From Gammaproteobacteria bacterium (GTDB lineage Bacteria > Pseudomonadota > Gammaproteobacteria > Steroidobacterales > Steroidobacteraceae), in assembly GCA_028293765.1 (NCBI GenBank), contig JAQGOG010000083.1, positions 1-43,374 of the forward strand: DNA of 43,374 nucleotides. Reading direction: 5' to 3'. A program made the translations under genes and the position numbers. The notes beneath the pieces were generated by a model. That model was not told the origin of the DNA. It did not search any database and worked only from the letters and a program-made list of their open reading frames with translations. How positions within the stretch are numbered: the first letter of the stretch is position 1; the number at the start of each line of letters is the position of its first letter. Below, piece by piece: positions 21,458 through 29,846 of this stretch.

Positions 21458-22198
21458 ATGAGCGAGCCCTATTTCCTTTCCCCGCACGTCCACGTCTGCA
21501 TCGCCGGGAAGCAGGTGATCCTGTTGGACCTGAAACGGGACAAGTACCTGGCGGTTGTGCCTGCGCATCGTCTCGCTCGCTGGGTGAGAGGCTGGCCGGT
21601 GGCGCCCCCAGAGCCCATCGCGCCCCTGGCACCTGAAGACGCGCAGTCATCGAACGACGCGGGTCGGGAGAGCGGTCTGCTTTCGAAGATGATCTCGCAA
21701 GGTCTCCTCGTTACCGACCCCAGGGTCGGAAAAGAAGCCGCGCCCGTGGTGGCCGAACGAGCCGGGACCGCCTTGATGGAATTCGATATGAATACCCGGC
21801 CACGCGCGAGTCTCGCGCATTTCTGGCGCCTCCTGGCAGCCTACACAGCCGCGAAATCAGCCCTGAAATTCCGCCCCATCAGGTCGGTCGTGCGGTTCGC
21901 GCAGGCACGCAATGAGCGTGCACAGGCATCCGCGATCGAGATGGACTTCGGCAGGGCGCGGGATCTCGTGACCGCCTTCATGCACCTGCGACCTTTGTTC
22001 TTTACCGCGCGCCAAGCCTGCTTGCTCGACTCGCTGACGCTGCTCAATTTCCTGGCAGGCTACCGAGTCTTTCCCAAATGGTTTTTTGGCGTGAAGACCG
22101 ACCCCTTCTATGCCCACTGCTGGGTGCAGCAGGGCGGCTTCGTATTCAACGACACCCCCGACTACGTCAGGGGATTCTCGCCCATTCTGGTCGTTTAA
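21458..22198 (+). CDS. Lasso peptide B protein: RRE fused to leader protease
   Basis: A 246-residue two-domain maturation enzyme. Residues 1-90 are the PqqD-like RiPP recognition element (FLSPHVHVC, VILLDLKRDKYLAV) that binds the leader peptide. Residues about 115-246 are the transglutaminase-like cysteine protease that removes it. The catalytic triad reads Cys188 (RQACLLDSL), His220 (PFYAHCWVQ) and Asp232 (FNDTP), in the order and context typical of lasso B2 enzymes. ATG at 21458 is chosen because RRE domains begin this way; an AGGAG site lies further upstream (21410), so a start at TTG 21425 is possible. Gene C follows after 21 bp. The fused B1-B2 form is usual in Proteobacteria. Confidence 0.92.
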   Translation: MSEPYFLSPHVHVCIAGKQVILLDLKRDKYLAVVPAHRLARWVRGWPVAPPEPIAPLAPEDAQSSNDAGRESGLLSKMISQGLLVTDPRVGKEAAPVVAERAGTALMEFDMNTRPRASLAHFWRLLAAYTAAKSALKFRPIRSVVRFAQARNERAQASAIEMDFGRARDLVTAFMHLRPLFFTARQACLLDSLTLLNFLAGYRVFPKWFFGVKTDPFYAHCWVQQGGFVFNDTPDYVRGFSPILVV

Positions 22199-22219
22199 CG
22201 AACGCGAGGGATCACTGTC

Positions 22220-24049
22220 GTGTTTCGTTATTTGGCATTCGTATGGCACGATCACGACCCAGCCGCGCGGGAAACCGCGAGACGGCTCATTCATCGACAT
22301 TCTTCGCAATCCCCGGAGTGGCGGGTAGCGGCCAGTGAAAAGGGACTTTTCGTGGGGTACGCCGGTGCCAGGGCGGGATCAAGCGAACCCTACCTCCTAC
22401 GGGAAGGAGGGGGCGTCGTGCTCGGAAAGCTTTTTGAGCGTTCGAGCGACGGCCCGTCGACCCCGGCACCCTTAGCTTTGGATGAGCCTCGGACTCGCGC
22501 CATCATTTCGACGGGTGGTCGACGTCTGATCGACCACTACTGGGGTCGATATGTCGCATTCCTTCACGACGACTCCTCGAGCACAAGCTGGGTGCTGCGC
22601 GACCCGACGGCCGGTCTTCCGTGTCTCACGTTGCGATTCGGCGGCGTGTACGTCTATTTCTCGTTGCTCGAGGATGCGCTGACGCTGGGATTGGGTCCTT
22701 TTGAAGTGAACTGGGGCTTCCTGGCCGCCGGCGTCTGCCAGATGCGGGAGCATGCGCACGGAACCGCGCTTCGCGATGTCTCGCAGGTCGTGGGTGGGGA
22801 GTGCCTGGAACTGCGCGGCGATAAGTTCAGCAGCTCCTTCTACTGGGACGCCCTGCAGATCGCGAATTCGAACCTCATCGAAGATCCGGCCCAAGCCACG
22901 AGCGCGCTGCGCAACTGTGTCAGGGACGCCGTGCACGCGTGGGCTTCCAGCTACAGCAGCATCATCCTTTCGGTCTCCGGCGGCCTCGATTCGTCGATCG
23001 TCTTTTCCTGTCTTCGCGATGCGCCTGTGAAGCCGGAAATCACCTGCTTCCACTATTACCCGACCGGTTCCGACATGGACGAGCGGGGGTTTGCGCGCCT
23101 GGTTGCCAAGTCCGGGAACCGGGAGCTCATAGAACGTCCGCGCGACTCGGCGCTCAGCCTCCAGCCCCTGCGGAACGTTCAGGCGTTCCAGGAGCCCGGG
23201 AACTACTTGTACTACCTCGAGCACAGCCGGCTGGACGCGCAGCTCGCCGCCGAGCACGGCGCAACCGCTTCCTTCGTCGGCTGGGGCGGTGATCAGCTAT
23301 TCTTTCAGGAGCGCGCGGTTTGGGCTGCCGGTGACTATCTGCACTACCACGGTCTGCGCCCGGATGTGCTGCGCATCGCGTTAGATTCGGCCCAAATGGA
23401 TCGGATCTCCGTCTGGGAGGTGCTGCGAGAGGCCGTTGGTCAATATGCCATGCGCCGCCATTGGAACATGGGTGAGGATGCTGGCTGCTTCAGGTCCCTG
23501 GTCCGACCCGAGATCCTGGCGGAGGTGCGAAGCAGCGGCGCCTACCTGCACCCACTTTTGCTCGACTCACGCGGGACGCCGAGCGGTAAGCTCTGGCACG
23601 CTCACCAACTGAGCGGTCCCTGGGAATTTTACGATCCGCTTGGCGAGCCGGACGATCCCGAAACGGTCGCACCGCTGTATTCTCAGCCGGTCATCGAGCT
23701 ATGCCTGCGCATACCGGTCCACGTGCTGACTCTCGGCGGATGGGATCGCGCCATTGCGCGTCGCGCCTTTTACAACGACATGCCGCTCGAGATCGTCAAC
23801 CGCAGGAACAAGGGAGGCATAGAAGCCCACCTGCGCGGAATTCTGGAGCACAACAGCGCCTTCCTGCGTGGCCTTCTGCTCGATGGGGCATTGGTGCAGC
23901 AAGGGCTGGTCGATCGTAACAAGCTCGCGACGGTGCTCTCCGGCAAAGCGACGCGGATTCAGGTGAGCAGCGGCGAGCTGTTCGACTTCATCTCCACCGA
24001 GACGTGGCTGCGGCGCTTGAGAAACCAGGCGTGGCGAGCCGCGGCCTGA
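22220..24049 (+). CDS. Lasso peptide cyclase (asparagine-synthetase-like C protein)
   Basis: A 609-residue ATP-dependent macrolactam synthetase. It should adenylate the side-chain carboxyl of the core peptide's Asp and join it to the freed N-terminal glycine. The N-terminal region resembles class II glutamine amidotransferase but lacks the catalytic Cys2 (starts Met-Phe-Arg), as in known lasso cyclases. The ATP pyrophosphatase loop is SGGLDSS at 253-259. The start is GTG at 22220 with GAGGGA upstream. It lies 21 bp after the B gene and is followed by a TonB receptor on the same strand, so B, C and the receptor may share a transcript. Confidence 0.93.
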   Translation: MFRYLAFVWHDHDPAARETARRLIHRHSSQSPEWRVAASEKGLFVGYAGARAGSSEPYLLREGGGVVLGKLFERSSDGPSTPAPLALDEPRTRAIISTGGRRLIDHYWGRYVAFLHDDSSSTSWVLRDPTAGLPCLTLRFGGVYVYFSLLEDALTLGLGPFEVNWGFLAAGVCQMREHAHGTALRDVSQVVGGECLELRGDKFSSSFYWDALQIANSNLIEDPAQATSALRNCVRDAVHAWASSYSSIILSVSGGLDSSIVFSCLRDAPVKPEITCFHYYPTGSDMDERGFARLVAKSGNRELIERPRDSALSLQPLRNVQAFQEPGNYLYYLEHSRLDAQLAAEHGATASFVGWGGDQLFFQERAVWAAGDYLHYHGLRPDVLRIALDSAQMDRISVWEVLREAVGQYAMRRHWNMGEDAGCFRSLVRPEILAEVRSSGAYLHPLLLDSRGTPSGKLWHAHQLSGPWEFYDPLGEPDDPETVAPLYSQPVIELCLRIPVHVLTLGGWDRAIARRAFYNDMPLEIVNRRNKGGIEAHLRGILEHNSAFLRGLLLDGALVQQGLVDRNKLATVLSGKATRIQVSSGELFDFISTETWLRRLRNQAWRAAA

Positions 24050-24175
24050 GCACCGAAATCATGGACGATAAAAGGTGCTGCGGCGCGATGAGATCGACCT
24101 CGAGAGTGGTTGTTCTGACGTATCTCTCGCTAGTGCAAACGCACACGTGGCACACTCGGCGCGGTGGCAGGGAAC

Positions 24176-29339: not shown

Positions 29340-29596
29340 TCCGGATCGGCACACGGCTTGCGTCGATATCCGGTGGTGCAGACCGCCGGCTCGAGCTGGA
29401 GCGCATGTGTTGTGATCAGGTGCATCTCATCAAGCCCTACGTCGGCCGAGCGCTGCGCGCGCGGACGCAAACACAGTTTGAATTACACCTTTTTGCGTGC
29501 GAGCACTGCCGGCGTGCAGTTGAATTCGAACTTCTCGTCAAGCGAGCTGTTGCGGATTTCGCAAAATTCGCACAATTTTCCCGATCCTGGCATTAA
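29336..29596 (+). CDS. Small zinc-finger-like (H-x3-C-x2-C) protein
   Basis: An 86-residue protein starting at GTG 29336, whose start overlaps the FecR stop by 4 bp (GTGA), which implies translational coupling. The segment HLFACEHC is an H-x3-C-x2-C motif like that of zinc-binding anti-sigma (ZAS / zf-HC2) proteins, within a helical frame (FELHLFACEHCRRAVEFELL). Two further cysteines lie near residue 25. No membrane segment is seen, so if it is an anti-sigma or adaptor it is cytoplasmic. It could tune the upstream sigma factor. The gene is probable, the role inferred. Confidence 0.6.
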   Translation: MIRIGTRLASISGGADRRLELERMCCDQVHLIKPYVGRALRARTQTQFELHLFACEHCRRAVEFELLVKRAVADFAKFAQFSRSWH

Positions 29597-29618
29597 GAGG
29601 CAATAGAGGACGAACAAC

Positions 29619-29846
29619 ATGCTCATTCTTACACGACGGGTCGGCGAGACCGTGATGATAGGGGACGAGGTGACGATCACTGTCCTTGGGGTAAAGGGGA
29701 ACCAGGTGCGCGTGGGAATCAACGCACCGAAGAGCGTTGCCGTACACCGGGAAGAGATCTACGAGCGCATCAAACGCGAGCAGCAGGGCGAGTCGGGGGA
29801 GTCGGGGGATAAGCCCAAGCACGCGGCGGAATACGCGCCGGCCTGA
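29619..29846 (+). CDS. csrA: Carbon storage regulator CsrA/RsmA
   Basis: A 75-residue RNA-binding protein that represses or stabilises mRNAs by binding GGA motifs. The sequence MLILTRRVGETVMIGDEVTI is the canonical N-terminus; the C-terminal RNA-contact segment VAVHREEIYERI is present. A Gly/Glu/Ser-rich tail of about 20 residues is extra. GAGGA lies about 9 bp before ATG at 29619, and the gene is 22 bp after the small zinc-finger-like gene. The usual csrA neighbours in gammaproteobacteria (alaS, a serine tRNA) are absent, so this may be an extra copy tied to the sigma-factor operon. Confidence 0.95.
   Translation: MLILTRRVGETVMIGDEVTITVLGVKGNQVRVGINAPKSVAVHREEIYERIKREQQGESGESGDKPKHAAEYAPA

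What the first reader, a model, noticed from the sequence alone, without database searches (positions are those of the whole stretch)
21458..29846. New lasso-peptide cluster with opposite-strand precursor and FecI/FecR/STN-receptor control
Seen: an RRE-protease fusion with Cys188/His220/Asp232, an SGGLDSS cyclase, an STN TonB receptor, a 52-residue precursor with a strong ribosome-binding site, and FecI/FecR. Known: proteobacterial lasso clusters of the isopeptidase-associated type (astexin, xanthomonin, caulonodin) carry a TonB receptor and FecI/FecR. Unusual: the precursor is not upstream of B but convergent with the receptor and divergent from FecI, and neither isopeptidase nor ABC exporter is in the window. 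Inference: the peptide is made, exported by an unknown route, re-imported by its receptor and sensed as its own signal, perhaps as a metal carrier or chemical cue.
Basis: partly seen in the sequence, partly recalled or inferred. Interest (0 to 1): 0.93.

Follow-up and report, generated by a model that had tools for sequence, protein, structure and literature searches.

The report
Lasso peptide beside its own receptor
This uncultured bacterium carries genes predicted to make a knotted 'lasso' peptide beside genes for a predicted outer-membrane receptor and sensor pair, and several related genomes have lost peptide-making genes but kept the receptor and sensor genes, so the peptide is likely a shared carrier or signal that non-makers would also use.

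Summary
The locus encodes a fused leader peptidase (B), a cyclase (C), a TonB receptor with a weak STN match, a 52-residue precursor on the opposite strand, and FecI/FecR. The odd precursor position is a conserved layout: in 21 of 21 loci (three genera) where the place could be read in a genome with the cyclase, a precursor lies opposite the receptor, with Thr-2, Gly1 and Asp9 (Asp8 in one). In five genomes B-C-FecI-FecR lie on another contig, and the precursor is with the receptor.

(2) Eight same-genus genomes have no intact cyclase here. In seven of them the receptor is open over all that the contigs hold, and the precursor is absent, broken or altered in the seven that could be read. Receptor dN/dS stays at 0.27 between two that share the same precursor break. 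This suggests that non-makers still use the receptor: a lasso peptide as shared carrier or signal. Cargo, export route and FecI target remain unknown. New variant of a known kind.

The parts
21458..22198 (+). B: leader peptidase, RRE part fused to transglutaminase-like B2 part (246 aa)
   Evidence: lasso_biosyn_B2 74.1 bits, Transglut_core3 59.7 bits; C188, H220, D232 invariant in 17 of 17. The N-terminal RRE part is assigned from recalled B-protein anatomy, not by a model.
22220..24049 (+). C: lasso cyclase, asparagine-synthase-like (609 aa)
   Evidence: Asn_synthase 70.9 bits; SGGLDS in 17 of 17
24164..27190 (+). TonB-dependent receptor with STN domain (up to 1008 aa)
   Evidence: barrel 127.3, plug 53.2, STN 25.3 bits, the last below its cut-off; STN in 14 of 15 receptors scanned
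27240..27398 (-). A: 52-aa precursor; predicted leader to Lys-1, core GGVYGSKMDIGAGLQVF, predicted ring Gly1-Asp9
   Evidence: homologues at the same place in 21 of 21 readable loci
27399..27701 (.). Intergenic region between the divergent A and FecI genes; would hold both promoters
   Evidence: Upstream sequences of relatives listed and read by eye; no shared site established
27702..28268 (+). FecI-like ECF sigma factor (188 aa)
   Evidence: Sigma70_r4_2 42.2 and r2 31.4 bits
28278..29339 (+). FecR-like anti-sigma/sensor (353 aa)
   Evidence: FecR 69.2 and DUF4880 31.7 bits

Best explanation
The locus carries genes predicted to make a 17-residue lasso peptide (likely ring Gly1-Asp9), beside genes for a TonB receptor and a FecI/FecR pair that likely recognise the same peptide, and eight related genomes keep this receptor gene without an intact cyclase gene, which suggests that the peptide works outside the cell as a shared carrier or signal. 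Mechanism proposed: B removes the leader after Lys-1 and C closes the ring (inferred from family). The peptide leaves the cell by a route not identified in this genome; several relatives have an ABC exporter gene next to B (its role is inferred). Loaded or free, the peptide is taken back by its receptor (inferred). The receptor's STN domain would signal through FecR to FecI, which would switch on receptor and/or peptide genes (inferred from the recalled FecA-FecR-FecI scheme). Shown: the gene set, the conserved convergent precursor, the joint position of precursor and receptor where the cluster is split, the decay or alteration of the precursor where the cyclase is lost, and constraint on the receptor in two such genomes.
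For: Precursor opposite the receptor in 21 of 21 readable loci of three genera. Six core positions invariant in 19 same-genus cores, 15 of them distinct. Split clusters: precursor with the receptor and away from B-C-FecI-FecR in 5 of 5 genomes, one clade. Precursor absent, broken or altered in 7 of 7 readable genomes without intact cyclase. Receptor dN/dS 0.27 (bootstrap 0.20-0.37), FecI 0.15, FecR 0.21 between G032 and G044, which share the same precursor break. At least 3 changes between maker and non-maker forced by well-supported branches. 20 of 22 same-genus genomes with the cyclase also have the receptor; the other two are at contig ends.
Against: All genomes but the contig named are unnamed draft assemblies; G044 and G030 are only 65% and 70% complete. 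Non-makers cluster on the tree, so eight genomes are about four events, not eight. Receptor omega is nominally higher in non-makers (0.27 against 0.21-0.22), though intervals overlap. The precursor remnant differs less (6% of 126 sites) than the cyclase remnant (15% of 283), so the peptide's loss may be younger than assumed or the stretch is too short to tell. G027's receptor itself has an internal deletion. By bare motif, the precursors of G030 and G033 would still pass. No export route, cargo, promoter or ligand was shown; STN scores below its Pfam cut-off in the window.
Confidence: 0.62

Rival explanations
1. The receptor and FecI/FecR are a nutrient or metal uptake system of their own that sits beside a lasso cluster; the peptide is an antimicrobial or has another target, and non-makers keep the receptor for its other substrate.
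For: Receptor, FecI and FecR persist without B/C, as expected if they have an independent job. In the split genomes the receptor lies next to a Peripla_BP_2 gene. No binding was tested.
Against: The precursor lies opposite the receptor in 21 of 21 readable loci, and in split genomes it is with the receptor and not with B/C. No clear case of cyclase without receptor among 22 (two unreadable). A toxin entering by this receptor should select against keeping it in cells that lack the biosynthesis genes (inference).
Confidence: 0.2
2. It is an ordinary isopeptidase-type lasso cluster whose isopeptidase and exporter are encoded elsewhere in the genome.
For: The relatives' S9 gene beside the second cluster scores only 50.9-56.5 bits on the AtxE2 model, and the window's genome has S9-like proteins up to 75.6 bits and MsbA-like ABC proteins at 31-35% identity to the relatives' exporter, so a divergent one could be overlooked.
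Against: No match of the genome to the AtxE2 model over its cut-off of 400 and none to the relatives' S9 at 1e-30. The model matches at that weak level in 11 of 14 control genomes, so the 75.6 bits are not specific. 0 of the genus genomes among the 52 searched has an AtxE2-type match at 1e-80. The reviewed layout puts the isopeptidase next to the receptor (PMC9266682, passages).
Confidence: 0.15
3. The non-makers are recent or assembly-made losses; the receptor is simply not yet decayed and no sharing occurs.
For: Draft genomes; G027's receptor is already damaged; precursor remnants are less diverged than the cyclase remnants.
Against: Remnants lie inside contigs with different ends in different lineages. 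G032 and G044 share the precursor break and have since diverged (dS 0.14) with receptor omega 0.27.
Confidence: 0.25

Closest known systems
Isopeptidase-type proteobacterial lasso clusters (astexin, benenodin, sphingopyxin, rubrinodin; PMC9266682, passages)
   Same: A, B, C with a TonB receptor and a FecI/FecR-like pair
   Different: No isopeptidase recognised here; precursor opposite and downstream of the receptor instead of upstream of the biosynthesis genes; order B-C-receptor
Metanodin cluster of an uncultured Steroidobacterales (PMC12670498, abstract and passages)
   Same: Closest named lineage seen in the reading; lasso B and C
   Different: Has an isopeptidase gene and starts its ring with Asn. 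I did not compare its sequence with this locus
Exporter-type lasso clusters (microcin J25 type; recalled, and PMC9266682 passages)
   Same: Relatives of this locus carry an ABC exporter gene next to B
   Different: The window has no such gene; a receptor and sigma pair are linked instead
FecA-FecR-FecI cell-surface signalling (recalled)
   Same: TonB receptor with an STN-like domain, FecR-like protein, ECF sigma
   Different: The ligand is predicted to be a ribosomal lasso peptide encoded at the same locus; sigma target unknown

Membership tests
Lasso peptide cluster | Precursor with Thr at -2, Gly1 (or like) and Asp/Glu at 7-9 | tested here: met
   Thr-2, Gly1, Asp9 in the window; the same in 21 of 21 readable loci (Asp8 in one)
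Lasso peptide cluster | B2 leader peptidase with Cys-His-Asp | tested here: met
   74.1 bits, cut-off 33; residues invariant in 17 of 17
Lasso peptide cluster | Asparagine-synthase-like cyclase | tested here: met
   Pfam 70.9 bits, cut-off 21; the narrower NCBIfam cyclase models match below cut-off
Lasso peptide cluster | Threaded macrolactam product | not testable with these tools
   Needs expression and MS/NMR
Isopeptidase-type lasso cluster | Isopeptidase gene beside the receptor | tested here: not met
   None in the locus; in the genome no AtxE2-model match over cut-off and no homologue of the relatives' S9 at 1e-30; a divergent enzyme elsewhere is not excluded
Isopeptidase-type lasso cluster | TonB receptor and sigma/anti-sigma pair | tested here: met
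Isopeptidase-type lasso cluster | GntR-like regulator before the precursor | tested here: inconclusive
   The gene before the precursor is FecI, divergent; the regulator found upstream of B is MarR-like, at 18037-18630. Not every frame of the window was scanned
Exporter-type lasso cluster | Linked ABC exporter | tested here: not met
   None in the scanned genes of the window; best genome match to the relatives' exporter 35% identical
FecIRA-type cell-surface signalling | STN domain on the receptor | tested here: inconclusive
   25.3 bits against a cut-off of 28.4 in the window; found at E <= 0.001 in 14 of 15 receptors
FecIRA-type cell-surface signalling | Adjacent ECF sigma and FecR | tested here: met
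FecIRA-type cell-surface signalling | Sigma-dependent promoter of receptor or peptide | tested here: inconclusive
   Upstream sequences read by eye only

The most novel reading that the evidence does not exclude
A lasso peptide with a conserved ring (GGxxGxKxD) is a public good, a siderophore-like carrier or a signal, and its lineage has repeatedly produced freeloaders that discard peptide synthesis but keep the peptide's receptor and surface-signalling switch under selection. That would be a natural producer/receiver split for a lasso peptide, and would show that receptor-linked lasso peptides are shared goods rather than weapons.
Probability: 0.4. Interest if true: 0.82.

Novelty: new variant of a known kind. 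Interest (0 to 1): 0.62.

Why it matters
What receptor-linked lasso peptides do is open: those of isopeptidase clusters mostly lack antimicrobial activity, and a siderophore-like role is a hypothesis in the papers read here (PMC9266682, PMC11006600, passages). This genus gives a natural experiment: makers, split clusters, and non-makers with the receptor kept. It makes the question testable with named genes (peptide, receptor, FecI reporter). It also offers a lasso cluster with receptor and sigma pair but no recognised isopeptidase, which does not fit the reviewed two-clade picture.

Tried and rejected
Tried without result: a shared FecI promoter site upstream of A, B and FecI (read by eye; only -10-like patches); named relatives in genome contigs (one locus, L040, a 3,583-base contig, the same length as G049's cyclase contig); the receptor across the class (1 of 369 genomes, the window's own, at 1e-150; the sample was drawn evenly and held few family genomes, so it says little about the range).

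Considered and set aside: that the precursor is a chance frame (conservation); that the opposite strand is peculiar to this genome (21 of 21); that a second lasso cluster in this genome serves it (one PF13471 gene, and one cyclase match); that the Peripla_BP_2 gene beside the relocated receptor proves metal uptake (not concluded: in G000 and G049 its homologue lies by a NUDIX gene with no receptor match in the few kb read, it also occurs in genomes without this receptor, and 24 of 41 genomes searched have no match at 1e-25).

Rows dropped: receptor matches of 37-40% identity (G011, G048, G007, and the second one in G138), and the cyclases of G011 and G048 that go with them, were not counted as this type. 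G004 and G017 (receptor at contig ends, no cyclase found) are undetermined. G049's receptor is split over two contigs and was left out of the trees, as was G004's. G017 was an unlabelled row in the first tree and left out of the two used for counts. G045, G047 and G050 could not be read for the precursor. The dN/dS pairs were chosen for closeness, not all pairs. Note 4 says that the S9 gene always goes with the second cluster; recounted, it is 9 of 11.
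Full report
What is there. The window is a 43,374-base contig of a 6.64-Mb draft genome (211 contigs, 98.8% complete). Gene order: B 21458-22198 (+), C 22220-24049 (+), TonB receptor 24164-27190 (+), precursor A 27240-27398 (-), FecI 27702-28268 (+), FecR 28278-29339 (+), then csrA and a GGDEF gene. B passes the lasso B2 model (74.1 bits, cut-off 33). 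C is an asparagine-synthase-like protein with SGGLDS. The receptor has barrel, plug and an STN match that is below cut-off in the window but recurs in 14 of 15 receptors scanned. The precursor ends SETK-GGVYGSKMDIGAGLQVF: Thr at -2, Gly1, Asp9.

Is it chance or a one-off? The cyclase matches 54 of 217 genomes of the family at 1e-10, the window's included. I fetched 40 stretches around such cyclases, then 28 more around receptors, remnants, exporter or S9 matches. The layout B>C>receptor> <A FecI>FecR recurs through the genus and in two other genera. A precursor with Thr-2, Gly1 and Asp9 (Asp8 in G138) lies opposite the receptor in 21 of 21 loci, from genomes with the cyclase, where the place could be read: 19 of the window's genus, one each of two others. 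G045, G047 and G050 could not be read, being at contig ends. In the 19 same-genus cores (15 distinct) G1, G2, G5, K7, D9 and G13 never vary. That is more than ring closure needs, and suggests that something recognises the ring.

Precursor and receptor form a pair. In G025, G041, G055, G015 and G040 the block B-C-FecI-FecR-csrA lies on one contig with no receptor match in the stretch read (L042-L046). The receptor with A opposite it lies on another contig (L081-L085). These receptors form one clade, so this is probably one event, but it leaves A with the receptor, not with B and C. In four of the five a Peripla_BP_2 gene is next to the receptor; in G055 it is on a different contig (94 and 87 bits for the two tested). 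In the window's genome its homologue is on another contig by a NUDIX gene. This is a lead to a metal- or corrin-type cargo, not proof.

Exporter and isopeptidase. In several relatives an ABC exporter gene lies just upstream of B or of its former place (L053, L058-L060, L078, L079, L091, L096, L097, L099). About 3.8 kb from B a second, divergent lasso cluster begins in L053, L058-L060 and L091, with an S9 gene and its own receptor, and with FecR and FecI where the stretch reaches them (L058; L076 shows the same without the first B and C). The window has neither. The genome's best match to that exporter is 35% identical, and it has no match to that S9 at 1e-30. The AtxE2-type model gives no match over cut-off in the genome (75.6 bits against 400; at that weak level it also rings in 11 of 14 control genomes). 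In 52 genomes of the family with a cyclase match, 6 have an AtxE2-type match over cut-off, none of the window's genus. A caution: the relatives' S9 itself scores only 50.9-56.5 bits on that model, so a divergent isopeptidase elsewhere is not excluded by score. That S9 occurs in 11 of 34 genomes searched; 9 of those 11 also have the second cluster's cyclase, G024 and G026 do not.

Genomes that keep the receptor but lost the maker. All 58 same-genus genomes were searched for the receptor (24, 34). Thirty have this type (51% identity or more). Of these, 20 also have the cyclase, whole or cut only by contig ends; eight have only remnants or nothing at the place (G018, G027, G028, G030, G032, G033, G034, G044); two are undetermined (G004, G017). 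Remnants differ between lineages: cyclase residues 516-599 in G032, 425-472 and 479-590 in G044, 466-603 in G018, 303-368 and 455-602 in G033, scattered pieces in G028, and no cyclase in G030, G034 and G027. B is broken or missing in seven of the eight; in G028 it still aligns almost end to end. The receptor is open over all that the contigs hold in seven of eight: single-contig in G028, G032, G034 and G044, cut by a contig end in G018, in two contigs in G030 and G033 (the second pieces of G030 and G033 and only). G027's receptor has an internal deletion. FecI and FecR are present in seven of eight; G018's contig ends before them (frames were checked for stops only in G032 and G044). The precursor: no match in G034 and G027, frame-broken in G032 and G044, without the ring Asp in G028, changed at the otherwise invariant Gly2 in G030, shortened at the C-terminus in G033, not readable in G018. 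By bare ring motif alone G030 and G033 would still pass. The reverse, a cyclase of this type without the receptor, was not clearly seen: 20 of 22 genomes have both, and in G047 and G050 the cyclase lies at a contig end.

Selection. G032 and G044 share the same break in the precursor, so this peptide was most likely lost before they parted. Between them the receptor has dN 0.039, dS 0.141, omega 0.27 (bootstrap 0.20-0.37); FecI 0.15 (0.06-0.28); FecR 0.21 (0.13-0.33); the neighbouring GGDEF gene 0.19 (0.10-0.34). The cyclase remnant differs at 15% of 283 sites and the precursor remnant at 6% of 126; the second figure is lower than a long-dead gene would suggest. G028 and G018 give 0.27 (0.20-0.36), but whether their loss is shared is not known. 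Four maker pairs give 0.21-0.22, intervals overlapping. So the receptor side is still constrained after loss, perhaps a little less. A maximum-likelihood tree of 29 receptors needs 4 changes between maker and non-maker, 3 of them forced by well-supported branches; non-makers are clustered, so eight genomes are about four events (3 and 2 in the 26-row tree).

How it most likely works. Shown: gene set, conserved layout, precursor-receptor pairing, decay or alteration of the precursor where the cyclase is lost, and constraint on the receptor. Inferred: leader removal and ring closure; release by an unidentified route; re-uptake through the receptor with TonB; STN-FecR-FecI signalling; a function outside the cell that non-makers can use. 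Carrier and signal cannot be told apart here. A weapon entering by this receptor fits poorly with keeping the receptor in cells that lack the biosynthesis genes.

Known or new. In the passages read, PMC9266682 says that isopeptidase clusters share an almost constant layout with receptor and sigma pair downstream of the isopeptidase, that isopeptidase clusters form a clade apart from the others, and that rubrinodin has both exporter and isopeptidase. PMC11006600 calls a siderophore-like role a hypothesis. Metanodin (PMC12670498, abstract and passages) is a lasso peptide of an uncultured Steroidobacterales with an isopeptidase gene. PMC9064862 and PMC13352647 were seen in passages and added nothing on this layout. 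Searches (listings of at most 20 papers each) showed no title or abstract on receptor-only lasso genomes or on this layout. The library lacks most subscription papers and all preprints, so this is weak evidence of novelty. I file it as a new variant of a known kind.

Noticed in passing
L053, L058, L059, L060, L091: Two divergent lasso clusters about 3.8 kb apart, the second with an S9 gene and its own receptor; an ABC exporter gene and a 378-aa protein with a weak DnaA-C-like helix-turn-helix match lie between.
   Followed up: partly
L106 (G024): S9 gene and a receptor like that of the second cluster (32% identity), with no second-cluster cyclase found in the genome: perhaps a receiver-only state of the other cluster.
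   Followed up: no
L081, L082, L084, L085: The relocated receptor-precursor pair lies next to a Peripla_BP_2 gene, NUDIX and acyl-CoA dehydrogenase genes.
   Followed up: partly
window 29619-31127: csrA and a GGDEF gene follow FecR in most same-genus loci whose stretch reaches that far; whether they belong to the response is unknown.
   Followed up: no
L054, L055, L077, L092, L093: A second ECF sigma gene (about 23% identical to FecI) just upstream of B or of its former place.
   Followed up: no
L057:13757-13906: The G138 precursor has a predicted 8-residue ring and a tail ending Cys-Ile-Cys, unlike the genus cores.
   Followed up: no
window 455-14621: TonB receptor, tryptophan halogenase, cupin, GH20 hexosaminidase and PTS genes: looks like an amino-sugar (chitin) uptake locus.
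   Followed up: no
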